From IMG/VR virus record IMGVR_UViG_3300025669_000055, positions 1-48,104 of that record: 48,104 nucleotides of DNA; one strand, 5' to 3'. The DNA is from a virus. Under the pieces are notes generated by a model. The model was not told the DNA's origin. It did not search any database and was given only the letters and a program-made list of their open reading frames with translations. Made by a program: the position numbers and the translations under genes. This document shows positions 8,536 to 28,232 of the stretch, in pieces; the first letter of the stretch is position 1; the number at the start of each line of letters is the position of its first letter.

Positions 8536-8570
8536 ATTGTTTTTTATTATTTTAATAATTTATTAAATGA

Positions 8571-8607
8571 GGTGTTCCGCCCACCAATAGTGATGAGCGG
8601 ATACCGC
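8571..8607 (-). promoter_or_regulatory. Intergenic hairpin pair between capsid-region genes
   Basis: The gap 8536-8613 holds two inverted repeats: GCGG-ATA-CCGC at 8597-8607 and GGTG-TTCCGCC-CACC at 8571-8585. They lie just after the stop codon of the 242-residue gene. There is no good U-run on the minus strand, so a plain intrinsic terminator is doubtful. An RNA-processing or transcript-end-protecting structure after the capsid genes is possible. Confidence 0.4.
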
Positions 8608-8613
8608 ATTTAA

Positions 8614-14375: not shown

Positions 14376-14376
14376 A

Positions 14377-16035: not shown

Positions 16036-16420
16036 TTGTTAGATTATCACTTTTATTAGCTAATTGACCTACCCTACTCTCAAGTTTTTTTATTTTGTAA
16101 GACAGATCGTCCGTAACATTTGATAATCCGCTAATAATTTTGCTTAATCCTACCGCTGTACTTGCACAAATTTTTTCTGGAGTCATGCACATCGTCGCAA
16201 AAAATTTTCTACGTTCCACTTCACCAAGTAAATCTCGTAGGTACTTCACGTCTTCTACTGCACGAGAGAAATCAATTGGTCCAGTTGGTTCATATTTTAC
16301 GATTTCGCCTCCAGTTTTTTTAAGATCGTCCGGCATTTTTGCTTGAAACATGACTTCATTCATCATTACTCCAAAGAATTTTGTTTCTGTTATAGATTTT
16401 TTCTCTACCAATACTTCCAT
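15974..16420 (-). CDS. Small terminase subunit candidate
   Basis: A 148-residue protein encoded immediately before TerL and overlapping it by 62 bp. The C-terminal part (LSYKIKKLESRVGQLANKSD, about residues 106-125) is coiled coil, and the middle is helical (FSRAVEDVKYLRDLLGEVERRKF). TerS proteins are small, oligomeric and encoded just upstream of TerL, so position and size fit. I do not see a clear helix-turn-helix at the N-terminus, so a different packaging-associated role remains possible. Confidence 0.5.
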   Translation of the reverse strand: MEVLVEKKSITETKFFGVMMNEVMFQAKMPDDLKKTGGEIVKYEPTGPIDFSRAVEDVKYLRDLLGEVERRKFFATMCMTPEKICASTAVGLSKIISGLSNVTDDLSYKIKKLESRVGQLANKSDNLTNAEKQRIDKFLKRKENFPRQ

Positions 16421-16433
16421 AAAATTTTTCTAT

Positions 16434-16454
16434 AAAAAAAACGCCAAAAGGCGT
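16434..16454 (-). terminator. Leftward intrinsic terminator just before the terminase genes
   Basis: On the minus strand a 5-bp GC-rich stem, ACGCC-TTTT-GGCGT (16441-16454), is followed directly by a run of seven or eight T residues (16434-16441). The T-run ends about 13 bp upstream of the ATG at 16420. It is therefore a terminator or attenuator inside the leader of the late transcript. Confidence 0.7.
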
Positions 16455-16461
16455 ATTAGAA

Positions 16462-16476
16462 TGTGGTAACACCACA
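16462..16476. promoter_or_regulatory. Perfect inverted repeat TGTGGT-AAC-ACCACA
   Basis: A 15-bp inverted repeat with 6-bp arms and a 3-bp centre, adjacent to the leader terminator of the late block. It may be a protein-binding site or an alternative RNA helix that competes with the terminator hairpin next to it. Confidence 0.5.
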
Positions 16477-16651
16477 AACTAGATCAAAATTTTTAAACCA
16501 TCTTTGTAAGAAATCAATAAGCATATACCTATATAAATTGATTATTTGTAAGTCGGCACGTTGGCGCCGACCTATGACCCTTTCTTACCTCCAAAAAGGA
16601 AAAAGATAAGTGGGCGCTTTTTTATTTTTGTGACAATATGTCAACATTTAC

Positions 16652-16680
16652 ATTATAGCATATATTTAAATTTTTGGAAA
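16652..16680 (-). promoter_or_regulatory. Leftward promoter candidate with extended -10
   Basis: On the minus strand TTTCCA, a 17-bp spacer and TATAAT, with TGC directly before the -10 hexamer (an extended -10). A DnaA box lies 9 bp upstream. It would start transcripts that pass the terminator at 16434-16454 before the terminase genes. The -35 match is weak (4 of 6). Confidence 0.55.
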
Positions 16681-16689
16681 ATTTTTTTA

Positions 16690-16698
16690 TGTGGATAA
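16690..16698 (-). promoter_or_regulatory. DnaA box
   Basis: TGTGGATAA, the exact reverse complement of the consensus DnaA box TTATCCACA. It is next to the leftward promoter candidate at 16652-16680. Confidence 0.6.
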
Positions 16699-16742
16699 CT
16701 TTTCCTGGAGTGAAATATTGGGTGGGGCTAGTTTTTAGGTAC

Positions 16743-16774
16743 AAAAAGGGGCCCTTAAATGAAATAAGGACCCC
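16743..16774 (-). terminator. Strong leftward intrinsic terminator
   Basis: On the minus strand a 9-bp stem (GGGGTCCTT with AAGGGCCCC, one G-U pair) spans 16748-16774 and is followed by five T residues (16743-16747). It lies between the leftward promoter at 17115-17143 and the terminase genes, so it would cut the late transcript short unless anti-terminated. Confidence 0.75.
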
Positions 16775-16935
16775 GATTTGAAATGATAAATATATGACGG
16801 TTACAGAGGTAACGATTTTAGTATAGCACGGATTAAGGGGGAGGGGAAGAGAGAGGCTTACTGAAATTATTAACCTGGCATAATACCCCACAGGTAACGG
16901 GTAGGGGTCACCCCGAACTTTGACATGTTTTTGAG

Positions 16936-16952
16936 TGTTAGCTAACATTAGC
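16936..16952. promoter_or_regulatory. Palindromic operator candidate, copy 1
   Basis: TGTTAGCTAACA (16936-16947) is a perfect 12-bp palindrome and overlaps GCTAACATTAGC (16941-16952), giving three half-sites in a row. The 12-mer GCTAACATTAGC occurs again at 17457-17468. Placement on either side of the divergent promoters suggests binding of a phage regulator. Confidence 0.55.
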
Positions 16953-17057
16953 CCACCATGTCAATACGAACATAATACGAACTTACGTTTATTAATATAC
17001 ATTAATCCACCTATTGGGGTTTTTTAGCTAACCTTGGGCTATTTATGAGTTGTTACT

Positions 17058-17066
17058 TGTGGATAA
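17058..17066 (-). promoter_or_regulatory. DnaA box
   Basis: TGTGGATAA, a perfect DnaA box in the same orientation as the one at 16690-16698. Confidence 0.6.
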
Positions 17067-17114
17067 CTCACTATAATATGGATTGATATATTATGTTGCT
17101 TATTGGGGGGCTAT

Positions 17115-17143
17115 ATAATAGCACAAAGCGAGGTATCTGTCAA
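17115..17143 (-). promoter_or_regulatory. Leftward promoter for the late block
   Basis: On the minus strand TTGACA (17138-17143), a 17-bp spacer and TATTAT (17115-17120), with TGC in front of the -10. This is close to a sigma-70 consensus. It reads towards the terminase genes. A perfect 8-bp inverted repeat abuts the -35 upstream. Confidence 0.7.
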
Positions 17144-17166
17144 AGTGGCCTGAGGTTGAGGCCACT
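17144..17166. promoter_or_regulatory. Inverted repeat abutting the late promoter
   Basis: AGTGGCCT (17144-17151) faces AGGCCACT (17159-17166) across a 7-bp centre. It directly touches the -35 of the leftward promoter, the usual place for an activator site. On the plus strand it is followed by AATTTT, so a weak rightward terminator is the alternative. Confidence 0.6.
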
Positions 17167-17295
17167 AATTTTGGTGGCTAAAAAAATATTTTTGACTAAT
17201 AATGACTAAAGATTGTTAAGCACAAAGGGTTTGAAAAAAAAGCTCTAAATTGTTCGACCAACTGCCCTTTTATTTAATGTTGGCTAATTATGCTA

Positions 17296-17324
17296 TTGAC
17301 TTTTGCTTGTTTTCGTTCTATAAT
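17296..17324 (+). promoter_or_regulatory. Rightward promoter, near-consensus
   Basis: TTGACT, 17-bp spacer, TATAAT. It points towards the early genes. No gene starts until 17728, so the transcript would have a leader of about 400 nt that passes through the (TA)10 tract and an operator copy. Confidence 0.7.
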
Positions 17325-17386
17325 CTCCGTAATTTGTCAATTAAGCTACAGTGTAAAAACCCTTATCCTTCTTTAATATTAGTTAA

Positions 17387-17406
17387 TATATATATATATA
17401 TATATA
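17387..17406. repeat. (TA)10 tract
   Basis: Ten TA dinucleotides in a row, extended by flanking A/T. In a region with DnaA boxes it could serve as an unwinding element; slippage at such tracts is also common. Confidence 0.8.
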
Positions 17407-17456
17407 AAATAGTAACCTAAATATATTAAGACTTTTTATGCGACCCTGTGATTATG

Positions 17457-17468
17457 GCTAACATTAGC
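17457..17468. promoter_or_regulatory. Operator candidate, copy 2
   Basis: GCTAACATTAGC, identical to 16941-16952. It lies between the two rightward promoters. Confidence 0.5.
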
Positions 17469-17598
17469 ACAAGCTGAGCCTAAAAAAGCAATGTAAATTT
17501 TAAAAGTGTTTGGAATATCGTTCAGCCTCAAGCCTTAATTTGCTATAACATTTAAATTATAATTAACTAACCCCTAAACAACTGCTAATATTGAACAC

Positions 17599-17627
17599 TT
17601 GACAAGATAATTTTCGTATGCTATAGT
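17599..17627 (+). promoter_or_regulatory. Early rightward promoter
   Basis: TTGACA, 17-bp spacer, TATAGT, with TATGC directly before the -10. It lies about 100 bp upstream of the first small early gene and would drive the rightward block. Confidence 0.75.
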
Positions 17628-17727
17628 TAAATAAGATAGGCCGAACGACAAAAAGAGGTTAAGCCATTTCACAAAAAAACGGCACAACAAAAATACTATG
17701 TTATAACTTATAAGTTACAGTATAAAT

Positions 17728-17871
17728 ATGACCTATAATATTACATATAAAATACCAAAATATAGACACGCTAGACAATCCTCCCAAACACTACGAAATT
17801 TATCCAAAAATGACCTCTCGGATTGGATTGCATGGATAAACTATAAAAGGGGAACTTACACCATATTTTAA
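17728..17871 (+). CDS. First small early protein, 47 residues
   Basis: A short reading frame beginning MTYNITYKIPKYRHARQSSQ, basic in its first half and aromatic near the end (DWIAWINYKRGTYTIF). It is the first gene after the early promoter at 17599. The start ATG follows an A/T-rich leader (TATAAATATG), the genome's usual start context. A perfect palindrome AACTTATAAGTT sits 12 bp upstream. No family recognised. Short length makes the call uncertain. Confidence 0.5.
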   Translation: MTYNITYKIPKYRHARQSSQTLRNLSKNDLSDWIAWINYKRGTYTIF

Positions 17872-17896
17872 CTCCATTTCAGGAGATTTAAAACCG

Positions 17897-17934
17897 GCGG
17901 GCAGAAGTGGGGTATAAACTCCCCACTCACCCGC
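17897..17934 (+). promoter_or_regulatory. Intergenic hairpin, GCGGG family, copy 1
   Basis: Helices GCGGG/CCCGC and AGTGGGG/CCCCACT stack around a short loop. There is no U-run after it, so it is not a plain terminator. The outer sequence (GGCGGGCAG on the left, CCCGCATATA on the right) is shared with the hairpin at 18126-18166. Confidence 0.65.
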
Positions 17935-17959
17935 ATATAATAAAATAACATTTAATCAA

Positions 17960-18118
17960 ATGACAAAAAGTTATCAAATCAAAACTTATTTAATTGACTG
18001 CGTGGGTTATTCAGATGAGGATTTAAAAGGAGCTAATACAGACGAATTAGTCGAATTAGTCGAAAATGAAAAGGAATGCGCTGAATATTTAGAGGTGCCA
18101 ATGTCTTATTTAAAATAA
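17960..18118 (+). CDS. Small early protein, 52 residues
   Basis: Starts MTKSYQIKTYLIDCVGYSDE and is acidic in its second half (ANTDELVELVENEKECAEYL). It looks like a small alpha-beta domain; no family recognised. The ATG follows the repeated leader type TTTAATCAAATG. It is flanked on both sides by hairpins of the same family, so it behaves as a cassette. Confidence 0.6.
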   Translation: MTKSYQIKTYLIDCVGYSDEDLKGANTDELVELVENEKECAEYLEVPMSYLK

Positions 18119-18125
18119 ATAAATG

Positions 18126-18166
18126 GCGGGCAGTGAATAGATAACGACTTACTTATTCACTCCCGC
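18126..18166 (+). promoter_or_regulatory. Intergenic hairpin, GCGGG family, copy 2
   Basis: Helices GCGGG/CCCGC and AGTGAATA/TATTCACT enclose a 14-nt loop. Only the outer parts match the copy at 17897-17934; the inner stem has changed on both sides while pairing is kept, which is covariation-like evidence for selection on structure. Confidence 0.7.
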
Positions 18167-18177
18167 ATATATATATT

Positions 18178-18294
18178 ATGAGTACAATTCAAAAACAAAA
18201 CCAAATCAAATCATTTTACAAATTAAATAAACTAACTGCCCTGATACTGCTATTACTAGCCGGCGCGGTGGTGGTAATAAATTTATGGAGTTAA
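18178..18294 (+). CDS. Small single-pass membrane protein, 38 residues
   Basis: Starts MSTIQKQNQIKSFYKLNKLT and continues with a hydrophobic helix ALILLLLAGAVVVINLW, giving one transmembrane segment at about residues 21-37 with a basic cytoplasmic N-terminus. It overlaps the next gene by 10 bp. Small phage membrane proteins of this kind act in exclusion or lysis timing, but function is unknown. Confidence 0.6.
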   Translation: MSTIQKQNQIKSFYKLNKLTALILLLLAGAVVVINLWS

Positions 18295-18464
18295 CAAAAG
18301 AACAACACGCTAACAATGTAAAAAGTTTAATGTTAAACAAGACAGACGCGGTATATAATGCAATTTTAAGAGGTGATGACCCGCGCGACTGTAAAGAATT
18401 TCAACTTTATTTAAAGAAAACAAACGATTATTTGAATAAACATCAATTAATCAAAACCGATTAA
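18285..18464 (+). CDS. Small early protein, 59 residues
   Basis: Starts MELTKEQHANNVKSLMLNKT and is predicted all-helical and soluble. Its start overlaps the 3' end of the membrane-protein gene by 10 bp, so the pair is likely translated together. No family recognised. Confidence 0.6.
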   Translation: MELTKEQHANNVKSLMLNKTDAVYNAILRGDDPRDCKEFQLYLKKTNDYLNKHQLIKTD

Positions 18465-18516
18465 ACCCTAACACGGAGCAGTCCCAGACAATAAGCGACT
18501 GCTCAAGTTAGAGTTT
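18463..18516 (+). promoter_or_regulatory. Long two-tier intergenic hairpin
   Basis: Outer arms AAACCCTAAC and GTTAGAGTTT (one mismatch) and inner perfect arms GAGCAGTC and GACTGCTC form a long stem over a 13-nt loop. It begins at the stop codon of the 59-residue gene. No U-run follows. The left flank CCCTAAC resembles the flank of the hairpins at 19407 and 20475. Confidence 0.65.
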
Positions 18517-18581
18517 AACTAATAATGCGAGCGTCGGCAGTACTCACATAAGTGAACAAACACCAGACCGCAAACAATTAA

Positions 18582-18980
18582 ATGACAAAAGAAAAAAAGT
18601 ATTTTATCGCTGATTTTTACACATCACCCGAGGAAATACAACAAAGAAAAGACCAAATTGATAGACAAATGGCAAGCGTGCTAAAAACAATCAAACAAGG
18701 CAAAATTTATGCCACAGTTACAAGTGTTAGCCGTTCGGGTATGTCAAGGCGAATTCTATTTTTTAGAGTTACCAAGGGCAGCATAGAACGAATAACACCC
18801 CAAATCGCGTGGTTATACGGAGCAGTTACACCTGGGAAATATAACCAAGGCGGAAAAGAACTAATTGAAGATGGTTTACAAGTTAGCGGTTGTGGTATGG
18901 ATATGATTTTTCATACTCTATACAATTGTATGCCGAACAAGCAAGCAAGCAAATGGCGTCAAAATTATAAAACCTTATAA
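18582..18980 (+). CDS. Conserved phage hypothetical protein (RSGMSR type)
   Basis: A 132-residue protein. The pair of motifs VSRSGMSRRILFF (about residues 48-60) and VSGCGMDMIFHTLYN (about 101-115) is one I recognise from uncharacterised small proteins in many phage and plasmid genomes; their function is not established. The protein is basic and probably cytoplasmic. It follows a 65-bp spacer with a small TCAC/GTGA hairpin after the long hairpin at 18463-18516. Confidence 0.7.
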   Translation: MTKEKKYFIADFYTSPEEIQQRKDQIDRQMASVLKTIKQGKIYATVTSVSRSGMSRRILFFRVTKGSIERITPQIAWLYGAVTPGKYNQGGKELIEDGLQVSGCGMDMIFHTLYNCMPNKQASKWRQNYKTL

Positions 18981-18995
18981 ATTAAATTTAAGTAT

Positions 18996-19178
18996 ATGTT
19001 ATTAGAAATTTTATTTACGGAGTTAAGACACGACAAAAACCTAAAATCTTTTTTAGGGGATATTGTTAAAAAAGTAAATGCAACAATAGAAATTAGGAAC
19101 GAAGAGGATAAAATTGTCATAACAGGTGGCAGTAAAGATATAAAAGACACCCTAACAATATTTTACCGTAACATCTAA
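18996..19178 (+). CDS. Small early protein, 60 residues
   Basis: Starts MLLEILFTELRHDKNLKSFL. A helix followed by a beta hairpin (ATIEIRNEEDKIVITGG) and a C-terminal helix suggests a small folded domain. No family recognised. It ends just before the structured element at 19180-19236. Confidence 0.55.
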   Translation: MLLEILFTELRHDKNLKSFLGDIVKKVNATIEIRNEEDKIVITGGSKDIKDTLTIFYRNI

Positions 19179-19179
19179 A

Positions 19180-19236
19180 TTAACCCCTCACCCCGTGGCT
19201 ATCACATAAAACTGGTAGCCACTAGCGAGTAGTTAA
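19180..19236 (+). promoter_or_regulatory. Structured intergenic element, three-tier stem
   Basis: TTAAC, CTC and GTGGCTA (19180-19201) pair with TAGCCAC, GAG and GTTAA (19216-19236). The element is followed by the same TTAATAAATTAAA leader as the elements at 19407 and 20475. No U-run. Confidence 0.65.
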
Positions 19237-19254
19237 TAAATTAAATATAATCAA

Positions 19255-19410
19255 ATGGCAAATGACATTGACTTATGGCGCGATATTGAAGATGTAGAGA
19301 AACTTATAAGGTGGTCTATAAGAGATAAGGATAAAATACTAGAGAAACTTTATAGAAAAGAGCATAAAAAATTAATGAGTAATTTTCAAGCTGTTTACAT
19401 TAATAGTTAA
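19255..19410 (+). CDS. Small early protein, 51 residues
   Basis: Starts MANDIDLWRDIEDVEKLIRW and is helical and charged throughout. The leader AAATATAATCAAATG is a near-copy of the one used by the genes at 19495 and 19700. Its stop codon lies inside the left arm of the next structured element. No family recognised. Confidence 0.6.
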   Translation: MANDIDLWRDIEDVEKLIRWSIRDKDKILEKLYRKEHKKLMSNFQAVYINS

Positions 19411-19476
19411 CCCCTAACCCTCAACCACAAAGGCGACAAGCCATTTCTGCCCTTGTGGTTCTGGGCTAGTGATTAA
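19407..19476 (+). promoter_or_regulatory. Structured RNA element with conserved loop, copy A
   Basis: AACCACAA(a)GG at 19423-19433 pairs with CCTTGTGGTT at 19451-19460. The loop has ACAAGCCATTTCT (19436-19448), identical to copy B at 20505-20517. Flanks TTAACCCCTAACCC and GGGCTAGTGATTAA can form an imperfect outer helix. The loop AGCCA can instead pair with TGGGCT downstream, a pseudoknot that excludes the outer helix. Confidence 0.7.
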
Positions 19477-19494
19477 TAAATTAAACATAATCAA

Positions 19495-19689
19495 ATGACT
19501 AATAAAACAGCTTTATGTGTTGCTTGCCTTGATGAATTTGAGCAAGACAGGGATTTGCAATTATGTGATAATTGCATAACTAAATATGATACCGACAAAA
19601 TATGGAAAGACCACGACGAAAACAAAATTGATATTCTTGATGTTAACGAGAATATTCAATTATTAAATGAGTATATGTTAAATAACTAA
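19495..19689 (+). CDS. Small zinc-ribbon protein
   Basis: A 64-residue protein with CVACLDEF and LCDNCI near residues 8-28, two CxxC knuckles typical of a zinc ribbon. The rest is acidic and helical. Small phage zinc-ribbon proteins often bind host RNA polymerase or nucleic acid; nothing here decides which. Leader AAACATAATCAAATG, no Shine-Dalgarno. Confidence 0.65.
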   Translation: MTNKTALCVACLDEFEQDRDLQLCDNCITKYDTDKIWKDHDENKIDILDVNENIQLLNEYMLNN

Positions 19690-19699
19690 ACATAATCAA

Positions 19700-19876
19700 A
19701 TGACTAAACAATCAATCAAAAAAAGACTTGCCTATTTAAGACAAGAGATTGAAGCCGAACGTATAAGCCAAGGCGAAATCCTTGAATTACAAGGCTTAGC
19801 CGAACACATAGACGCGGGCGACACTCTGCTTTTAGAGTGGGCTTTAGTCCCTGAGTTTAACGGATACTTAGATTAA
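19700..19876 (+). CDS. Small early protein, 58 residues
   Basis: Starts MTKQSIKKRLAYLRQEIEAE; a helical hairpin protein with a conserved-looking C-terminus (LLLEWALVPEFNGYLD). It starts 10 bp after the zinc-ribbon gene, using an exact copy of the same leader (AAACATAATCAAATG). The composition recalls short phage proteins of unknown role that contain an ERIS-type helix. No firm family. Confidence 0.65.
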   Translation: MTKQSIKKRLAYLRQEIEAERISQGEILELQGLAEHIDAGDTLLLEWALVPEFNGYLD

Positions 19877-19899
19877 TTTAATAAATTAAACATAAAACT

Positions 19900-20478
19900 A
19901 TGTCATCGACAAATCGTGGCTATGACCGCCATAAATCAGACTACTACATCACGCCCTTACAACCAATCAAGGAGTTTTTATCTGTATTTTTATTGGATGA
20001 AAATATAACGAGGCCAGACCGTTTAATTTGGCTTGACCCTTGCTCTGGTGGTGATAAAAATAATCCAATGAGTTACCCGACTGTTATTAAGGAAGAATTC
20101 GACCCGTTAATAATGACAATCGATATTCGGGAAGATAGTTTAGCTGAGTTAAAGGCTGATTATTTGCTAGAAGAAATCAAAGCGCCTAAGCCGGATATAA
20201 TTATAACTAATCCGCCTTTTCATCTAGCTAAGGAAATTATAACTAAGGCGCTGGATGATGTTGGCAATGGTAGATATGTGATTATGCTTTTACGGCTTAA
20301 TTTTTGGGGAAGTAAAGACCGCAATCAGTGGTTAAAGGATAATATGCCAAAGTATTGTTATATTCATGGCTTTCCTAGGATGTCTTTCACTAAAGACGGT
20401 GGCACTGACTCAATCGAGTATGCCCATTTTGTTTGGCAAAAGGGAACCAATAAAAATACAAAAATAATATTACTTTAA
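19900..20478 (+). CDS. DNA adenine methyltransferase-like protein
   Basis: A 192-residue protein with a SAM-binding-type motif LDPCSGGD at residues 45-52 and the catalytic motif TNPPF at 103-107, as in N6-adenine methyltransferases. It is shorter than most Dam-type enzymes and has no obvious target-recognition domain, so it may be a solitary, low-specificity enzyme. Phages use such enzymes to escape host restriction. There is no restriction endonuclease gene beside it. The gene ends inside the next structured element. Confidence 0.75.
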   Translation: MSSTNRGYDRHKSDYYITPLQPIKEFLSVFLLDENITRPDRLIWLDPCSGGDKNNPMSYPTVIKEEFDPLIMTIDIREDSLAELKADYLLEEIKAPKPDIIITNPPFHLAKEIITKALDDVGNGRYVIMLLRLNFWGSKDRNQWLKDNMPKYCYIHGFPRMSFTKDGGTDSIEYAHFVWQKGTNKNTKIILL

Positions 20479-20546
20479 CCCTTAACCCTCACCTAAGACG
20501 GCTAACAAGCCATTTCTACCGTCTTAGAGATGGGCTAGTGATTAAT
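20475..20546 (+). promoter_or_regulatory. Structured RNA element with conserved loop, copy B
   Basis: CTAAGACGG (20493-20501) pairs perfectly with CCGTCTTAG (20519-20527). The loop ACAAGCCATTTCT is identical to copy A although the stem sequence is wholly different. AGCCATTTCT in the loop can pair with AGAGATGGGCT just after the stem (one bulge), forming a long pseudoknot. Outer flanks TTAACCCTTAACCC and GGGCTAGTGATTAA match copy A. Confidence 0.75.
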
Positions 20547-20570
20547 AAATTGCCCGCACATTTAAAATTT

Positions 20571-20786
20571 ATGGATAAATTATTTATTATTGAATATTGC
20601 GATCAAGGCACTTCCTGGTATTGGGCAAAAAATAAAGAGGAAGCTAAAAAGCAAGCCTTAGAAACAGATGAAGCCACAGAATATGCCTTAGAAGAAGCAG
20701 AAATCTGGTGCATAGATGAAGCCATAAACAAACAAGAACTAAAAGAACGCCTTGACAGGTACATTAATAAACCATTAAATAAATAA
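20571..20786 (+). CDS. Hypothetical early protein, 71 residues
   Basis: Starts MDKLFIIEYCDQGTSWYWAK and then has alternating charged helices (KKQALETDEATEYALEEAEI). I chose the ATG at 20571 because it follows AAAATTT and matches the genome's start context; the in-frame GTG at 20538 lies inside the conserved right flank of the structured element. It resembles small DUF-type phage proteins but no family is certain. It ends shortly before a rightward terminator. Confidence 0.6.
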   Translation: MDKLFIIEYCDQGTSWYWAKNKEEAKKQALETDEATEYALEEAEIWCIDEAINKQELKERLDRYINKPLNK

Positions 20787-20808
20787 TAACAACACTCTTT
20801 TATTACTC

Positions 20809-20824
20809 CCACGCGTAAGCGTGG
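20809..20824 (+). promoter_or_regulatory. Hairpin CCACGC-GTAA-GCGTGG
   Basis: Perfect 6-bp stem with a GTAA (GNRA-type) tetraloop, just before the terminator at 20833-20885. Probably a 3' end stabiliser or protein-binding hairpin. Confidence 0.6.
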
Positions 20825-20832
20825 CACTACTA

Positions 20833-20885
20833 AAACACTGTTAACTTTACTTTAAGCGGGCAAGTAAAGCAGACAGTGTTTTTTT
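20833..20885 (+). terminator. Rightward intrinsic terminator
   Basis: AAACACTGT (20833-20841) pairs with ACAGTGTTT (20873-20881); inside it CTTTACTT pairs with AAGTAAAG. A T-run follows (20879-20885). This ends the first early transcript unit, in contrast to the other early hairpins that lack U-runs. Confidence 0.85.
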
Positions 20886-20942
20886 ATTAAAAAATAACTC
20901 ATTGAAATAAAAACAAAAATAAAAAATTAACAATTAAACAAA

Positions 20943-21521
20943 ATGAAAAAACTTACAAAAATGCTATTTTCAAGCATTATCAAACAAAGTAAAAACGATT
21001 TGCCGTTTACAGCAAGAGAAGGGCAAATGGTTAAATGGTTTATAAAATTCCAAATCCTTACACTGGTTATTATATCAGCATGGATTTATCCATTAATCAC
21101 GCTAAATAGCCACATAACAAGCTACAATCAATTAATTAAGGAGAATGTAAGCTTGCGGACTAAAAACAGCGTGGCGACCACCAAGAGAAGGATTTTAACA
21201 CCAGAAATTCCGGGAATACAGGTAAAAAGCGTCAAAAAAACTCCTGATCAAGTAAAAGATGAAATTCAGTTAATTGCGGAGGAACATAACTTTCCCTGGA
21301 TAGATTATCTTTTGCGGTTAGCCGGGTGTGAAAGTGAATTTAATTCAGAGGTGAGAGGTAAAATAGATAAAAGAGATAGAGGTGTTTTTCAGATTAATTC
21401 TTATTGGCATAGTGAAGTGTCAGACGAATGCGCGTTTAACGTCCGGTGTGCGACAGAGTGGACTATGTGGAGAATTGAGAGCGGACACCAAAACGAATGG
21501 ATTTGTGACAAATTAATTTAA
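20943..21521 (+). CDS. Membrane-anchored lysozyme/transglycosylase-like protein
   Basis: A 192-residue protein with a transmembrane segment at about residues 33-55 and a C-terminal lysozyme-like domain. The motif LAGCESEFN contains a candidate catalytic Glu130, and DRGVFQINSYWH (about 144-155) is the Gln-Ile-Asn signature of SLT/goose-type folds. It would cut peptidoglycan from the outer face of the membrane. It is encoded in the early arm, away from the holin-like genes near 45 kb, which is odd for an endolysin; a signal-anchor lysin or an entry-related or cell-wall-modifying enzyme is possible. Confidence 0.75.
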   Translation: MKKLTKMLFSSIIKQSKNDLPFTAREGQMVKWFIKFQILTLVIISAWIYPLITLNSHITSYNQLIKENVSLRTKNSVATTKRRILTPEIPGIQVKSVKKTPDQVKDEIQLIAEEHNFPWIDYLLRLAGCESEFNSEVRGKIDKRDRGVFQINSYWHSEVSDECAFNVRCATEWTMWRIESGHQNEWICDKLI

Positions 21522-21534
21522 TAATAATAAAACC

Positions 21535-21798
21535 ATGCTTATCAAAACAGAATTAACCCGGGCCGCGATAGATCACATCTTATTATGGGCCACAGGTTAT
21601 CGAAACAAATTTAGATGGACAAAACATGACACTAATTTAACAAACGTGCTTCACTTAATAAAGAAGCAAGTTGGTCGCAGGGCTTACAATAAGCAAAAAA
21701 TTAAAGAGTTAATAGGTGATGATGTATCAAAAGAAAAACTACAGGAAATAATAAAAATAGTAGATGAGGCACCAATAACATTGCGATTAAAGAAATAG
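21535..21798 (+). CDS. Hypothetical early protein, 87 residues
   Basis: Starts MLIKTELTRAAIDHILLWAT, basic and helical. It lies 13 bp after the lysozyme-like gene and ends just before the helicase control region. No family recognised. The ATG follows AATAATAAAACC. Confidence 0.55.
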   Translation: MLIKTELTRAAIDHILLWATGYRNKFRWTKHDTNLTNVLHLIKKQVGRRAYNKQKIKELIGDDVSKEKLQEIIKIVDEAPITLRLKK

Positions 21799-21818
21799 TT
21801 ATTAAGGTTCCTCACAGC

Positions 21819-21827
21819 TTATCCACA
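21819..21827 (+). promoter_or_regulatory. DnaA box
   Basis: TTATCCACA, a perfect DnaA box in the 330-bp gap before the replicative helicase. Confidence 0.6.
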
Positions 21828-21911
21828 TTAAAAAATCAAGATCTTTACAAAAAAAACTAAACTATAATTTGTAAACTGTAGTTTGTTAAATGTTAGCACT
21901 TTTTTATAGTA

Positions 21912-21940
21912 TTGCATTTTTAAAAGCTGTAAGCTATACT
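21912..21940 (+). promoter_or_regulatory. Promoter for the replication genes
   Basis: TTGCAT, 17-bp spacer, TATACT, with TAAGC before the -10. Its transcript would begin with a leader of about 180 nt that contains the 117-nt hairpin at 21992-22108. Confidence 0.65.
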
Positions 21941-21991
21941 TTAATTAAGTTAATCCTCTATATGTTTGTCAACAGAGTTTAATAACTCACC

Positions 21992-22108
21992 CCTATTAAA
22001 AAACCGGATAATATCAGTTAGACATTCATGCCTTTATATTACTAAGCCTTATATAAAAGCACGACAAACTATGGATTTCAGCTGATTTTTATCCGGTTTT
22101 TTAATAGG
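21992..22108 (+). promoter_or_regulatory. Large hairpin in the helicase leader
   Basis: A perfect 20-bp inverted repeat: CCTATTAAAAAACCGGATAA at 21992-22011 and its complement at 22089-22108. Inside, ATCAG/CTGAT extends the stem, and TTTATAT/ATATAAA forms a further helix. It ends 20 bp before the helicase ATG. It could be a replication origin structure or a leader that controls helicase expression. Confidence 0.8.
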
Positions 22109-22128
22109 AGTGCGCTAATTAATATTTT

Positions 22129-23697
22129 ATGCTAACGAATGCACTCGTCCAAGGGGCGACTAAAAATAGTATTTTAATTGCTAATTATATGATAGAGCAA
22201 GCCACAATTGACGGTAAACACTTCGCCTATAGCGAGAAAGAAAAAATGCTTTACTGTTATGATGGTAAGATTTATATACCATTCGAAGGGATCGATCTTG
22301 ATCAGTTTTTCCACGATTTTATGGTTCAATACAACGCCACCGAAATGTGGAAATCGTCAAGACTTGCAGAATTTGAGCGAGCAATTAAAGTAAATAAATT
22401 AGTCCCTCGAGTAGAGATGGACGATTACAATGATCAGATTTGTTTTAAGAACGGAGTGCTAGACATGAAGACAATGGAATTTAAAAATCATAGTAGTTCA
22501 CTATATTTCTCAACATTTGTAGATGTAGATTACGACCCGAAAGTAGGTTCCGAACCAGTAGCATTTTTAACCACAATGGAAAAAATCTTTTTCAATACTA
22601 AAACCGGAAAACCAGACTATGACACAATCGATCTTATAAAATGTATAGGTGGCTCCCTCATCTTTCCTAAAAATAAATTAAAACAATTGTTTATTTTCTT
22701 AGGTGGTGGTTCGAATGGTAAATCTGTAATAATGAATACATTTGCGATGTTTTTTTCAACCGACCACACCACTTATTTATCTCTCGAGGAGCTGTCAACT
22801 AAAAACAAAGAAAGGTCACGGTTGCTAAAGTCTCGTATCAATTTTTGTTCAGAGGAAAAAGGTGGAACTATTAATTCAGAAGAAATCAAACGGATTGTTT
22901 ATGGCGAGGGTATAACAATTGGACGGATGTATAAAGAGGCGGTTGAATTTATCCCTAAGACTAAAATTGTTGTGGCCGCTAATTCAAAACCATATTTTAA
23001 AGATACTAGTTATGGATTAGAGCGACGACTTACAATCGTAAACTTCGACAATTTATTTCTGCAAACTGCTAAGTTTAAAAAAACTAAAGACGCGGAGAAG
23101 CAAGGTATATTTTTAGCAGAAGATGATGATGATTTAATGGCTAAAATAAGAAAAGAACGTACACAAATTTTAAACTTTTTCCTAAAAGGATTGAAAATAT
23201 TAGTAGATCGTAAATGGGAAATGCCTGAAAGTGTTGCTGTTAAAGAGGCTAAAGAAGAATATATTGAGGGTAATGACACAGTTGGAACTTGGTTGAAAGA
23301 TAATTATGAAGTTGATGTTAGTGGAGAATCAAAGATATTAGCCTCTGATATTCTAGTAAACTACAGGACTTGGTACCAGGATAATGTAAGCACTCGATCA
23401 TTAAACTTTGCAGTTAATACAATGGGTACAAGAATTAATGAAATTTTCAGATTAAAGCCAATCCGTAAAGCAGTAAATGGTAAGAGATTGGCGCATTATA
23501 CATTAATGAAAAAAATATATGTTACTGACGACGATACAACAGAAGAGCCAGGAGATGGAAGTGAGCTACCGGTGGGCGATCTTGTGCAGGGCTCGTTATC
23601 TATACCAGAAAATCAAGGAGAGCCTACCACCAAGAGAAGTGAATCGGGAGAAGGAAATCAAGAGGTTGAGGAGAATAGCCAAGAAAGAACTCAGTAA
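22129..23697 (+). CDS. Superfamily 3 replicative helicase (P4/D5-type)
   Basis: A 522-residue protein that would unwind DNA at the phage origin. It has the SF3 Walker A FLGGGSNGKS at residues 190-199, a Walker B-like FCSEE near 239-243, and the sensor motif KIVVAANSKPYF at about 279-290 followed by LERRLTIVNF. The N-terminal 130 residues match the D5_N-type region that precedes the ATPase in P4 primase-helicases, but no primase catalytic domain is fused. The C-terminal 50 residues are acidic and low-complexity, and their DNA also encodes the start of the next gene in another frame. Confidence 0.88.
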   Translation: MLTNALVQGATKNSILIANYMIEQATIDGKHFAYSEKEKMLYCYDGKIYIPFEGIDLDQFFHDFMVQYNATEMWKSSRLAEFERAIKVNKLVPRVEMDDYNDQICFKNGVLDMKTMEFKNHSSSLYFSTFVDVDYDPKVGSEPVAFLTTMEKIFFNTKTGKPDYDTIDLIKCIGGSLIFPKNKLKQLFIFLGGGSNGKSVIMNTFAMFFSTDHTTYLSLEELSTKNKERSRLLKSRINFCSEEKGGTINSEEIKRIVYGEGITIGRMYKEAVEFIPKTKIVVAANSKPYFKDTSYGLERRLTIVNFDNLFLQTAKFKKTKDAEKQGIFLAEDDDDLMAKIRKERTQILNFFLKGLKILVDRKWEMPESVAVKEAKEEYIEGNDTVGTWLKDNYEVDVSGESKILASDILVNYRTWYQDNVSTRSLNFAVNTMGTRINEIFRLKPIRKAVNGKRLAHYTLMKKIYVTDDDTTEEPGDGSELPVGDLVQGSLSIPENQGEPTTKRSESGEGNQEVEENSQERTQ

Positions 23698-24133
23698 GTG
23701 GCAACATTTACGCCTAGAAGCTGATACAAAAGACCTGTGGTTTATAGATGATCAAACATTGATATGGTTGGAAAGGTTTAATAAATGTGAGAAGACACTA
23801 GCTTATTATAGACGGCTTAAAAAAGCTGATAAAGACGAAAAAGAGGGTAAAGTAGTTACCAGACCGGTTGAATATGATATTGAGAGGCTGAAAGAGACAC
23901 CAATTGTAGATATAGTTAAGCATTATGGCTTCAACGTTAAAATGTCCGGTGTCGGGCGTGGGTACATTAAATTAAGGCAAGAGAAAACCGCCTCATGTTG
24001 CTTAACAGTTGATAAAAATACATTTCACGACTTTGGATCCGGTGAACACGGCGACGTAATCGATTTCGTAGCCAAACAAGAAAACTGTGGATTTCAAGAG
24101 GCATGTAAAAGATTAACATTAATGGGATATTGA
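23519..24133 (+). CDS. Primase-like protein with degenerate CHC2 zinc finger
   Basis: A 204-residue protein. The C-terminal 75 residues look like a DnaG-type CHC2 zinc-binding domain: FHDFGSGEHGDVIDFVAKQ then FQEACKRL, but the cysteines and histidine that bind zinc are mostly lost. The N-terminal part is basic and helical. The ORF starts 179 bp inside the helicase gene in a different frame; the ATG follows AAAAAAATATATG, this genome's typical start leader. A later start is possible. It probably supplies DNA recognition to the helicase as a separate subunit. Confidence 0.65.
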   Translation: MLLTTIQQKSQEMEVSYRWAILCRARYLYQKIKESLPPREVNREKEIKRLRRIAKKELSKWQHLRLEADTKDLWFIDDQTLIWLERFNKCEKTLAYYRRLKKADKDEKEGKVVTRPVEYDIERLKETPIVDIVKHYGFNVKMSGVGRGYIKLRQEKTASCCLTVDKNTFHDFGSGEHGDVIDFVAKQENCGFQEACKRLTLMGY

Positions 24134-24134
24134 T

Positions 24135-24254
24135 ATGACTAAAGAAAAAGGTGTAATTCTGATAATATTTATAGTTTGTATATACTTTGGATTAAAATAC
24201 GACAGTCATTTAGCAACTATTGGAGCATTAATATCGTTATTATTATTAATATAA
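24135..24254 (+). CDS. Small hydrophobic membrane protein, 39 residues
   Basis: Starts MTKEKGVILIIFIVCIYFGL. Two hydrophobic stretches separated by KYDSH (about residues 21-25) suggest a helical hairpin in the membrane. The ATG overlaps the stop of the primase-like gene (ATTGATATG). Small membrane proteins among replication genes may tether replication to the membrane or act in exclusion; unknown. Confidence 0.55.
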   Translation: MTKEKGVILIIFIVCIYFGLKYDSHLATIGALISLLLLI

Positions 24255-24260
24255 AATTTT

Positions 24261-24959
24261 ATGCAAGTAATTTTATTCGACACAGAAACAACAGGTCTAA
24301 AAAACCCTCGACTGGTCCAACTAGCTTGGAAGTCAGAGAATAAGGACGTTAATCAAATGTTTTTTAAACCACCAGTACCAATTGAATTTGGTGCAATGGC
24401 TGTTCATCATATTACTAACGAAGACGTAGAAAAAGCCCCAATATTTGATGATGAGTTAAGGAAATTTTGGCAAAAAAAACTTAAAGATGTTGTTGCCGTT
24501 GCTCACAATCTACCGTTTGATGTTGGTGTTATGAGAAACGAAGGCGTGATAATTAATGGTGGAATATGTACCTTAAAAGTTGCTCGGTTTTTATTTCCAA
24601 ATGAAGAACAACACAAAATGCAATACTTGAGATATAGTTTAAAGTTAAAAGTAGATCGTGAAGCCGTCGCGCATGATGCCAAGGGCGACGTAATGGTTTT
24701 AGACGCTTTATTTAATAAGCTCTATGTAGTAATAGCGGAAAGGATGAGTTCACCTACTTTTGATGATATAATTGAAGAAATGATTAAAATCACCGGACAA
24801 CCATCAATCCTAAATAAAATTAGTTTTGGTAAGCACCGCGGAAAAACAATTAAAGAAATTATAGCCACAGATTCTAGTTATATTGATTGGCTGCTTAAAC
24901 AACCAACACTTGATAATGATTTAAAATATTCAATTAATTATCATAAAAAAAATGCGTGA
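24261..24959 (+). CDS. DnaQ-like DEDDh exonuclease
   Basis: A 232-residue 3'-5' exonuclease. ExoI motif FDTET has Asp7 and Glu9; ExoII HNLPFD has Asp87; ExoIIIepsilon AHDAKGD has His138 and Asp143. After about residue 185 a second small domain appears (ISFGKHRGKTIKEI and YIDWLLKQ), a short module I know from the C-terminus of several phage and bacterial exonucleases. It would proofread or degrade DNA during replication. No DNA polymerase is encoded in this window, so host polymerase is probably used. It overlaps the next gene by 8 bp. Confidence 0.88.
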   Translation: MQVILFDTETTGLKNPRLVQLAWKSENKDVNQMFFKPPVPIEFGAMAVHHITNEDVEKAPIFDDELRKFWQKKLKDVVAVAHNLPFDVGVMRNEGVIINGGICTLKVARFLFPNEEQHKMQYLRYSLKLKVDREAVAHDAKGDVMVLDALFNKLYVVIAERMSSPTFDDIIEEMIKITGQPSILNKISFGKHRGKTIKEIIATDSSYIDWLLKQPTLDNDLKYSINYHKKNA

Positions 24960-25326
24960 TTTATTTAGAACAGAAGGATTGAAAATATCCTATATAAAGG
25001 AATACATTGACCGGCGTAACCATCTTATAGGATTGGTAATAATAGCTTTATTTATTTTTGCAGCAGTATTTTTATGCTCAAACCTTCTAGTATTAAGAGG
25101 AAAAGTTCTTGAGCGATCAGAGAAAGAATGTGTAAGCGCAAGCGCTATTAGTAGCTGGGAGAACAGTCTAAACATCGCTAACCAAATCTGTGTCGAATCT
25201 CAAGGAAATTATATTTTAGATCTCAAAACTAATTATGATGCTCAAATAGGTAATCTTGAATCAGATGTCAAATATTGGAAGGACGCGTATATGTGGTTAA
25301 AATTTCAAAATAAAGAAGAAGAATAA
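24952..25326 (+). CDS. Single-pass membrane protein with coiled-coil tail
   Basis: A 124-residue protein: basic N-terminus, transmembrane helix at about residues 24-48 (NHLIGLVIIALFIFAAVFLC), then an extracytoplasmic helical region with two cysteines. The topology is like an Rz-type inner-membrane spanin, but its place next to the exonuclease and far from the holin-like genes argues against it. No family recognised. Confidence 0.55.
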   Translation: MRDLFRTEGLKISYIKEYIDRRNHLIGLVIIALFIFAAVFLCSNLLVLRGKVLERSEKECVSASAISSWENSLNIANQICVESQGNYILDLKTNYDAQIGNLESDVKYWKDAYMWLKFQNKEEE

Positions 25327-25346
25327 CATTAATTATAAATAAATAT

Positions 25347-25484
25347 ATGGATAAATATTTTTGGATTTGTCCAAACTGTAATACATGGAATAGGAAGGTA
25401 ACTGCGACTGAAACACAGGCAACAAATTTTACTGGTGCTGAATGTGAACATTGTGATTATAGACCAGATAATTATACATATTAA
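25347..25484 (+). CDS. Small zinc-ribbon protein, 45 residues
   Basis: Starts MDKYFWICPNCNTW and ends CEHCDYRPDNYTY: two CxxC knuckles about 22 residues apart, a minimal zinc ribbon. The ATG follows AAATAAATAT. Probably a nucleic-acid- or RNA-polymerase-binding protein. Confidence 0.65.
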   Translation: MDKYFWICPNCNTWNRKVTATETQATNFTGAECEHCDYRPDNYTY

Positions 25485-25499
25485 AAAAGGAAACAAAAA

Positions 25500-25622
25500 T
25501 TGAAGAAATGTGAAAACTGTGCCAGAAGAATCTGGCTAGTAACAAAATGGGGCTGTACTGTCTATCGAATACAGGTATTTAAAAAGAACCCTGTATTATG
25601 CAGGGAACACAAAAAAGCTTAG
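25500..25622 (+). CDS. Small Cys-rich protein with TTG start, 40 residues
   Basis: Reads (M)KKCENCARRIWLVTKWGCT then LCREHKKA. CxxC and a later C-x2-H could bind zinc. The likely start is TTG at 25500, because AAGGA lies 8 nt upstream, one of the few Shine-Dalgarno sequences in the early arm. No ATG is in a suitable place. The stop overlaps the left arm of a hairpin. Confidence 0.5.
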   Translation: MKKCENCARRIWLVTKWGCTVYRIQVFKKNPVLCREHKKA

Positions 25623-25644
25623 GGGAGGGCTTTAATTCTCCCCT
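25621..25644 (+). promoter_or_regulatory. Intergenic hairpin AGGGGAG/CTCCCCT
   Basis: Perfect 7-bp arms with a 10-nt loop between two early genes. No U-run follows. Confidence 0.6.
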
Positions 25645-25659
25645 ATCTAAATTAAAATT

Positions 25660-26106
25660 ATGAAAATTTATAAAACACAAAAAGAAGTAGAAAAAGACAT
25701 TAAAAATGGAGTGTTAGCTATCGAGGGAGATGTTAAATTTGAATGTTCAATTTACATCAGTGCTTCAATTAAGGTAACCGCTGGGGACATTAACGCTTTG
25801 GACATTAACGCTTGGAACATTAACGCTTGGAACATTAACGCTGGGAACATTGACGCTTGGAACATTAACGCTGGGAACATTGACGCTGGGAACATTGACG
25901 CTAGGAACATTTTATATTACGCCTTTTGTGGAGTGTATGATTCTATCAGATGTTTATCTATTAAAGCTAAAAGAGAATCTCACAGCGAGCCAGTTTGTCT
26001 TGATGGTAAATTAGAAATAAAAGACGAAGAAGAAAAAGTAACTATTAAAATATCTAAGAAATCCTTAGAAGCTTTAAAAGAAAGTGGTATAGAGATAATT
26101 GAATAG
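25660..26106 (+). CDS. Pentapeptide-repeat protein
   Basis: A 148-residue protein with an N-terminal 40-residue part, eight tandem five-residue units of the form (N/D)I(N/D)A(W/G) at about residues 43-82, and a C-terminal beta-rich domain (CLDGKLEIKDEEEKVTIKIS). Pentapeptide repeats fold as a right-handed beta-helix; some mimic DNA (MfpA, Qnr). The repeat DNA is nearly perfect 15-bp units, so copy number probably changes fast. I know similar proteins in phages and bacteria, without a proven function. It is followed by a large structured RNA candidate. Confidence 0.7.
   Translation: MKIYKTQKEVEKDIKNGVLAIEGDVKFECSIYISASIKVTAGDINALDINAWNINAWNINAGNIDAWNINAGNIDAGNIDARNILYYAFCGVYDSIRCLSIKAKRESHSEPVCLDGKLEIKDEEEKVTIKISKKSLEALKESGIEIIE
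25786..25905. repeat. Eight tandem 15-bp units
   Basis: Eight copies of AACATTAACGCTTGG-type units, differing at only a few positions (AAC/GAC at the start, TTAAC/TTGAC, TTGG/TGGG). They encode the pentapeptide repeats of the surrounding gene. Confidence 0.9.
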
Positions 26107-26121
26107 GTTGCCAGAGTCGAT

Positions 26122-26149
26122 GCTAGGTGAGACTTAAAATAATCCTAGC
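26122..26149 (+). promoter_or_regulatory. Hairpin GCTAGG/CCTAGC
   Basis: Perfect 6-bp arms (26122-26127 and 26144-26149) just upstream of the large structured element at 26156-26321; probably part of the same RNA. Confidence 0.55.
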
Positions 26150-26155
26150 TACAAC

Positions 26156-26321
26156 TTTGTTTATTACATTCTAGTAATATTGAGGACAGCGTAAAATGTT
26201 GCTGTTGCGGGAGGTGGATTGGTTGCGTCTCCCTAAGACTTACATCGGCTTAAAGTCCGTGGCGAATCCTCTAACCAAGAGTTTGAACCCTAAAGGATAT
26301 TACTAGAATGTAGTAAACAAA
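26156..26321 (+). ncRNA. Large structured RNA candidate closed by a 25-bp stem
   Basis: The 25 bases 26156-26180 are complementary to 26297-26321 with a single G-U pair. The 116-nt interior can form ACAGC/GCTGT (26186-26205), GGGAG/CTCCC (26209-26233), GACTT/AAGTC (26237-26257) and CTCT/AGAG near 26270-26281. TTGGTT in the loop of the GGGAG hairpin can pair with AACCAA (26273-26278), a pseudoknot. No tRNA cloverleaf or known class is recognisable to me. It lies in a 246-bp gap between two early genes. A small inverted-repeat mobile element is the alternative, but I see no clear target duplication. Confidence 0.65.
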
Positions 26322-26352
26322 CCCCTACTAAATAATTATTAATATAAAAGAG

Positions 26353-26553
26353 ATGAAAAAACATCTATGGACACTTATATATACCGACACAGATAGGGTT
26401 AGGGCTGCTTCTTTTAATATAACTGGTGTTAATAGTAGTTTTATTCCTGTGTTTTTTACCAGAAGAGATGCTGTTACTTTTTATAAAAAGTCTTTTAAAG
26501 AAGTTGAGACTACCTTGAAAATAACTAAGATAACCTTGTTAGAAACTAAATAA
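26353..26553 (+). CDS. Hypothetical early protein, 66 residues
   Basis: Starts MKKHLWTLIYTDTDRVRAAS. A small alpha-beta protein with alternating beta strands (LWTLIYTD, FIPVFFTR, TLKITKITLLE). Possibly paired with the structured RNA just upstream, since it is the next gene downstream. No family recognised. AAAGAG lies just before the ATG and is a weak Shine-Dalgarno. Confidence 0.55.
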   Translation: MKKHLWTLIYTDTDRVRAASFNITGVNSSFIPVFFTRRDAVTFYKKSFKEVETTLKITKITLLETK

Positions 26554-27874: not shown

Positions 27875-27891
27875 GTTTTCCTTAATGAATT

Positions 27892-27931
27892 GTTACCCTC
27901 TCCTTAGTTTCTAGCACTAGGGAGGGGTAAC
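27892..27931 (+). promoter_or_regulatory. Long intergenic hairpin after the SSB-like gene
   Basis: Arms beginning GTTACCC and ending GGGTAAC pair over about 15 bp with two G-U pairs and a 9-10-nt loop. No U-run follows. A second long hairpin follows at 27947-28010. Confidence 0.65.
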
Positions 27932-27946
27932 ATATATTGTTTATTG

Positions 27947-28010
27947 AAGCGGGTAGGCGGAAAATTATTGGTGTGTGTACGGGCATGTATACGCATTTAC
28001 CTGCCCGCTT
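27947..28010 (+). promoter_or_regulatory. Second long intergenic hairpin
   Basis: AAGCGGG and AGG (27947-27957) pair with CCT and CCCGCTT (28000-28010). The 42-nt interior has a further GTGTAC/GTATAC helix. It ends 18 bp before the next ATG; stem GCGGG/CCCGC is shared with the hairpins at 17897 and 18126. Confidence 0.65.
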
Positions 28011-28028
28011 TAATAAATAATCTCTTAT

Positions 28029-28232
28029 ATGATTTATACAAAATTAAGTGCAAAAAAATCACGTACAATCGGTACCCTTGATTCGCACGGTAAAACAAGA
28101 TTTAAGAAGATCGAGTTTCAAGCCGACGTTGAGTTAGACGAAAGTGACGATCCTGCAACCTGTAGGCAAGAACTCTCAACATTTATAGATAATTATTTAA
28201 GTGAGGAAGCTGCTAAAGCTTCTAAAAAATAA
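28029..28232 (+). CDS. Small protein of the recombination operon, 67 residues
   Basis: Starts MIYTKLSAKKSRTIGTLDSH; first half beta, second half helical and acidic. It lies 1 bp before the ATPase gene and so is part of the same operon. The type of protein (basic beta hairpin then helix) is common in phage recombination clusters, but no family is recognised. Confidence 0.6.
   Translation: MIYTKLSAKKSRTIGTLDSHGKTRFKKIEFQADVELDESDDPATCRQELSTFIDNYLSEEAAKASKK

What the first reader, a model, noticed from the sequence alone, without database searches (positions are those of the whole stretch)
26122..26321. Large structured ncRNA candidate
A 25-bp near-perfect closing stem, an adjacent hairpin, at least four internal helices and a possible pseudoknot in 200 nt. 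It is far more structured than the neighbouring elements and the interior is less A/T-rich than its surroundings. It does not match tRNA, tmRNA or group I intron features that I can check by eye.
Basis: partly seen in the sequence, partly recalled or inferred. Interest (0 to 1): 0.85.

Follow-up and report, generated by a model that had tools for sequence, protein, structure and literature searches.

The report
Long intergenic RNA hairpin in phage
Between two early genes of an otherwise unknown tailed phage there is a long, clearly non-random RNA hairpin, one of about ten in the same gene block, most likely a place where the shared messenger RNA is cut or protected rather than a free-standing new RNA gene.

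Summary
The 25-bp closing stem is real: arms 26156-26180 and 26297-26321 pair fully as + strand RNA (one U·G). None of 200 shuffled windows gave a comparable stem. The rest of the observation does not hold up as stated. The 116-nt interior folds no better than shuffled sequence (z -0.09). The adjacent hairpin is ordinary. It is not the most structured neighbour: 27875-28028 is far stronger.

Most gaps in this early (+ strand) gene block hold a significant hairpin: 10 of 14 have z below -3.3, against 5% of coding windows below -2.9. I read the element as the longest-stemmed of these intergenic mRNA hairpins, most likely an RNase III processing or mRNA-protection site (inferred). No Rfam match, no relative in the phage, plasmid, IMG/VR or GTDB searches I could make, no target duplication. 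The virus is an orphan: the only overlapping record found is a 100% identical fragment that stops 160 bp short. The interior is unusually G+C-rich (49%, top 1% of windows), so a distinct excised RNA is not excluded.

The parts
26156..26180 (+). 5' arm of the 25-bp closing stem, TTTGTTTATTACATTCTAGTAATAT
   Evidence: mean pair probability 0.91-0.995 for the two helix parts tested
26297..26321 (+). 3' arm of the closing stem, ATATTACTAGAATGTAGTAAACAAA; one U.G wobble, otherwise Watson-Crick
26181..26296 (+). 116-nt interior, 49% G+C; folds no better than shuffles
   Evidence: z -0.09 and -0.44; G+C
26186..26205 (+). internal hairpin ACAGCG-UAAAAUGU-UGCUGU, the only well supported local internal hairpin
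   Evidence: mean pair probability 0.95
26216..26269 (+). second internal arm closed by GGAUU (26216-26220) / AAUCC (26265-26269)
   Evidence: mean pair probability 0.85; model only
26122..26149 (+). adjacent upstream hairpin GCTAGG/CCTAGC, 16-nt loop
   Evidence: z -0.87: not beyond chance
26196..26306 (+). 36-codon ATG open frame inside the element; probably not a gene
   Evidence: codon score below the lower quartile of the phage's genes; no family or relative
25660..26106 (+). upstream gene, 148 aa, with a run of near-identical 15-bp (5-residue) repeats
26322..26352 (+). A/T-rich leader without Shine-Dalgarno sequence before the next gene
26353..26553 (+). downstream gene, 66 aa, function unknown
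21992..22108 (+). comparable intergenic long-stem hairpin: arms 21992-22011 and 22089-22108, perfectly paired, before the primase/helicase gene at 22129
   Evidence: (z -7.3)
27891..28020 (+). two strong intergenic hairpins before the gene at 28029; the structure is much more stable as + strand RNA
   Evidence: + strand -68.2, - strand -43.8 kcal/mol

Best explanation
The element is the longest-stemmed of a series of about ten intergenic hairpins in the early (+ strand) gene block of a tailed phage. It would be transcribed as part of a multi-gene mRNA. Its 25-bp duplex, more than two helical turns, would serve as a double-strand processing site (RNase III type) and/or as a block to exonucleases. 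It would separate the message of the 148-aa gene upstream from that of the 66-aa gene downstream and leave a short, unstructured A/T-rich leader in front of the latter. The 116-nt interior would be mostly spacer. Shown: the stem, its place between same-strand genes, the series of hairpins, the A/T-rich leaders. Inferred: co-transcription, the nuclease, the effect on expression.
For: Stem far beyond chance. It sits between two same-strand genes, 49 bp after a stop codon and 31 bp before a start codon. 10 of 14 gaps in this block have z below -3.3; 5% of 80 coding windows reach -2.9 (folds). The strongest member is 24 kcal/mol more stable as + strand RNA, as expected for a structure acting in the mRNA. 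The one imperfect position in this stem is a U.G pair only on the + strand (sequence). Hairpins in gaps 19410-19494 and 20479-20571 keep the loop ACAAGCCATTTCT while their arms differ in sequence yet still pair. No U-tract follows the stem and no terminator call lies there. [quoted passage not shown]
Against: No expression data. No relatives, so no covariation test of this stem. The interior is far more G+C-rich than a mere spacer needs, and at 116 nt it is long. The hairpins of the series vary greatly in length, so one function for all is an assumption. The host, and so its RNase III preferences, is unknown.
Confidence: 0.5

Rival explanations
1. A distinct phage non-coding RNA: the AT-rich stem is a processing stalk, as around pre-rRNAs, and the G+C-rich 116-nt interior, or the whole ~166 nt, accumulates and acts as an RNA.
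For: Interior G+C 49% in a 36% G+C genome; among windows of at least 47.5% G+C it appears to be the only one lying wholly in an intergenic gap (one search compared by eye with the gene list). The best fold is a junction of closing stem, ACAGCG hairpin and GGAUU arm. No protein-coding signal.
Against: Interior z -0.09; no Rfam match even at E 10; no relative; neighbouring gaps hold hairpins too.
Confidence: 0.22
2. A small non-autonomous mobile element (MITE-like): 25-bp terminal inverted repeats around a 116-bp foreign interior.
For: Terminal inverted repeats, intergenic position, deviating base composition of the interior.
Against: No target-site duplication at the arm ends for 2-12 bp. Single copy in the window. 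No copies in phage or plasmid records, no matching stem pair in IMG/VR beyond chance hits. Neighbouring gaps carry other hairpins in the same position.
Confidence: 0.1
3. A transcription-control RNA: an attenuator or a processive antitermination element (put- or EAR-like) in the early operon.
For: Position within a multi-gene early block; structured nascent RNA.
Against: No U-tract after the stem, no terminator call; no Rfam match, although Rfam coverage of put-like elements was not checked.
Confidence: 0.1
4. A small gene: 36-codon frame 26196-26306 with an SD-like GAGGA.
For: An ATG frame of this length occurs in only 2.4% of shuffles; GAGGA upstream of the ATG.
Against: Codon score -0.28, against a lower quartile of 0.07 for the phage's genes and within the range of shuffles. 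52 of 56 starts listed here have no SD-like sequence. No relative. The frame ends inside the stem arm.
Confidence: 0.04
5. A DNA-level element (cruciform, protein-binding inverted sites, replication or recombination site).
For: Long inverted repeat; arms nearly identical.
Against: The 116-bp spacer disfavours cruciform extrusion (established knowledge); the single mismatch is of the RNA-wobble kind; the strongest hairpin of the series is strand-specific; the arm motif recurs elsewhere in the window only with 2-3 mismatches.
Confidence: 0.04

Closest known systems
RNase III processing sites in the early mRNA of phage T7 (R-sites)
   Same: Hairpins in a polycistronic early phage message; duplex long enough for RNase III (PMC4858673, for T7).
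   Different: The R1.1 substrate used in that paper is 60 nt (products of 47 and 13 nt), much shorter than this 166-nt element. Cleavage here is not shown.
Pre-rRNA processing stalks cut by RNase III
   Same: A long stem brings the ends of an RNA together (established knowledge).
   Different: The enclosed 116 nt is not rRNA (no Rfam match) and has no supported fold.
phi29-type packaging RNA (pRNA)
   Same: General layout only: terminal helix, junction, two loops with a short complementarity (UGGUU/AACCA). Resemblance recalled from memory, a lead only.
   Different: No Rfam match at E 10; the loops in question are improbable in the model; this phage has an ordinary large terminase.
Large ornate phage-associated RNAs (GOLLD, ROOL, HEARO)
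   Same: Intergenic structured RNA in a phage genome.
   Different: No Rfam match; much shorter than GOLLD and ROOL (established knowledge).

Membership tests
RNase III processing site | RNA duplex of about 20 bp or more within a transcript | tested here: met
   25 bp with one U.G; presence in a transcript not shown
RNase III processing site | cleavage by RNase III, with 2-nt 3' overhangs | not testable with these tools
   needs RNA end mapping or an in vitro assay
Structured ncRNA family | match to a described family | tested here: not met
Structured ncRNA family | internal structure beyond chance | tested here: not met
   interior z -0.09
Structured ncRNA family | conserved helices with covariation | tested here: inconclusive
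   no homologue found in the collections searched, so covariation could not be counted
tRNA / tmRNA | ARAGORN or Rfam match | tested here: not met
Group I intron | Rfam match to the catalytic core | tested here: not met
   E up to 10
MITE / transposon | terminal inverted repeats | tested here: met
MITE / transposon | target-site duplication | tested here: not met
MITE / transposon | further copies | tested here: not met
   host genome unknown
Intrinsic terminator | G+C-rich hairpin followed by a U-tract | tested here: not met
phi29 pRNA | sequence/structure match to the Rfam model | tested here: not met

The most novel reading that the evidence does not exclude
A phage early transcript releases a G+C-rich ~116-170-nt RNA of an undescribed family, cut out through a 25-bp stalk, that acts on the host or in the virus cycle; the other intergenic hairpins form a related processing system.
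Probability: 0.15. Interest if true: 0.65.

Novelty: new member of a known kind. Interest (0 to 1): 0.3.

Why it matters
If right, this phage punctuates most early gene junctions with an RNA hairpin, a denser arrangement than T7's five early processing sites, in a virus most of whose genes lack Shine-Dalgarno sequences. It would be a tractable case for how such phages set the output of single genes in a shared message. As a free-standing new RNA it would matter more, but that is not supported now.

Tried and rejected
Rfam at gathering and at E 10: nothing. ARAGORN: nothing. blastn against phages and plasmids: only short chance matches. Interior 16-mer in IMG/VR: 14 hits, none alike much beyond the pattern. 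Conserved-stem pair with free interior in IMG/VR: 4 hits, no meaningful similarity outside the pattern. 40-aa open frame in IMG/VR and GTDB genomes: none. Neighbouring proteins and terminase as bait: only a 100% identical fragment of the same virus, ending at window 25996, and exonuclease or terminase relatives at 21-32% identity. A resemblance to HDV-like ribozymes (GGCGAA before a helix strand) was considered by eye and dropped, because no P1 strand fits. Series hairpin motif in IMG/VR: the same virus, plus two other matches that by eye do not look like such a hairpin.

Full report
WHAT IS THERE. The window is a 48,104-base virus record, a tailed phage by its terminase, tail and virion genes. 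Genes run on the - strand up to about 16,950 and from 32,746 onward; between lies a + strand block with primase/helicase, DNA-polymerase-type exonuclease, exonuclease VIII-like and helicase genes, here called the early block by analogy. The finding lies in the gap 26107-26352 between a 148-aa and a 66-aa gene on the same strand.

THE STEM. Arms 26156-26180 and 26297-26321 are 25 nt long and 96% complementary. The one non-Watson-Crick position is a U.G pair in + strand RNA and A.C in the other strand. In 200 dinucleotide-preserving shuffles of the whole window the best near-perfect inverted repeat averaged 13 and never exceeded 17, by a measure that gives 24 here. As RNA, 26100-26340 folds at -69.7 kcal/mol against -52.0 +/- 4.0 for shuffles. 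The stem is not chance.

THE INTERIOR. Folded alone, the 116 nt between the arms give -29.8 kcal/mol; shuffles give -29.5 (z -0.09). The - strand is no better. Within the element the model favours the hairpin ACAGCG/UGCUGU and the helix GGAUU/AAUCC. A low z-score does not exclude a functional RNA, but there is no positive evidence for a complex fold. The interior does stand out in composition: 49% G+C, reached by 1% of windows of that size. Comparing the listed positions of windows of at least 47.5% G+C with the gene list by eye, I see no other that lies wholly in an intergenic gap. This is the main reason to keep the ncRNA reading alive.

THE NEIGHBOURHOOD. It is not. Of 14 gaps tested in the + strand block, 10 fold with z below -3.3, while only 5% of 80 coding windows reach -2.9 (structures). 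Gap 27875-28028 has z -8.7 to -9.7, and the hairpin at 21992-22108 has a perfectly paired 20-bp core. Some - strand gaps hold strong hairpins too (z -7.2 at 8536-8613, -4.1 at 16421-16621), so the habit is not confined to this block. Two hairpins, in gaps 19410-19494 and 20479-20571, share the loop ACAAGCCATTTCT and the downstream GGGCTAGTGATTAATAAATT while their arms differ and still pair. That is a small within-genome sign of selection for pairing, from two copies only. The 27875-28028 structure is 24 kcal/mol more stable as + than as - strand RNA, which points to RNA and to the coding strand; several other gaps fold better on the - strand, so this argument holds for that gap only. For the element itself the strand difference is small.

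START SIGNALS. 52 of 56 listed gene starts have no SD-like sequence; leaders are A/T-rich. A few listed + strand starts in that table are off by one or two bases, which hardly affects the count. Members of the Bacteroidetes naturally lack Shine-Dalgarno sequences and tune initiation by mRNA structure and an A at -3 (PMC6847099). A host of that kind is plausible, not shown.

RELATIVES. None was found for the element: Rfam, phage and plasmid records, three kinds of IMG/VR scan and GTDB genomes via its open frame. The virus itself has one other record found here, a 25,949-base contig; the stretch held of it is 100% identical to window 14261-25996 and stops 160 bases before the stem. So absence of conservation says little: there is nothing to compare with.

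MECHANISM. The best-supported reading is a hairpin in a polycistronic mRNA. A duplex of more than two turns between cistrons is a natural substrate for RNase III; [quoted passage not shown] Cleavage or mere presence of the hairpin would separate and stabilise the two messages. There is no U-tract and no terminator call, so it is not an intrinsic terminator. A mobile element is weakened by the lack of a target duplication and of other copies. A small protein is weakened by un-phage-like codon use.

VERDICT. Real stem, over-read interior, one member of a series. Ordinary in kind; the series itself is the more interesting feature.

Noticed in passing
window 27875-28028: Two very strong adjacent intergenic hairpins (z -8.7 to -9.7), much more stable as + strand RNA (-68.2 vs -43.8 kcal/mol); more structured than the finding given.
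   Followed up: partly
window 19410-19494 and 20479-20571: Two intergenic hairpins with an identical loop ACAAGCCATTTCT and shared downstream GGGCTAGTGATTAATAAATT but different, still pairing arms; the scan of IMG/VR gave the same virus and two matches that do not look like such a hairpin.
   Followed up: partly
window 21992-22108: Intergenic hairpin with a perfect 20-bp stem and a 77-nt loop region just before the primase/helicase gene.
   Followed up: partly
window 25779-25898: Run of near-identical 15-bp repeats (five-residue units of the NINAW/NIDAG type) within the 148-aa gene upstream of the element; perhaps a beta-helix repeat.
   Followed up: no
window, all genes: 52 of 56 listed starts lack an SD-like sequence and have A/T-rich leaders, as in Bacteroidota.
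   Followed up: partly
window 8536-8613 and 16421-16621: Strong intergenic hairpins also in the - strand gene block (z -7.2 and -4.1).
   Followed up: no
window 22129-24133: D5-type primase/helicase frame (22129-23697) overlaps by 179 bases a second frame (23519-24133) that matches primase families; perhaps a split or overlapping primase pair.
   Followed up: no
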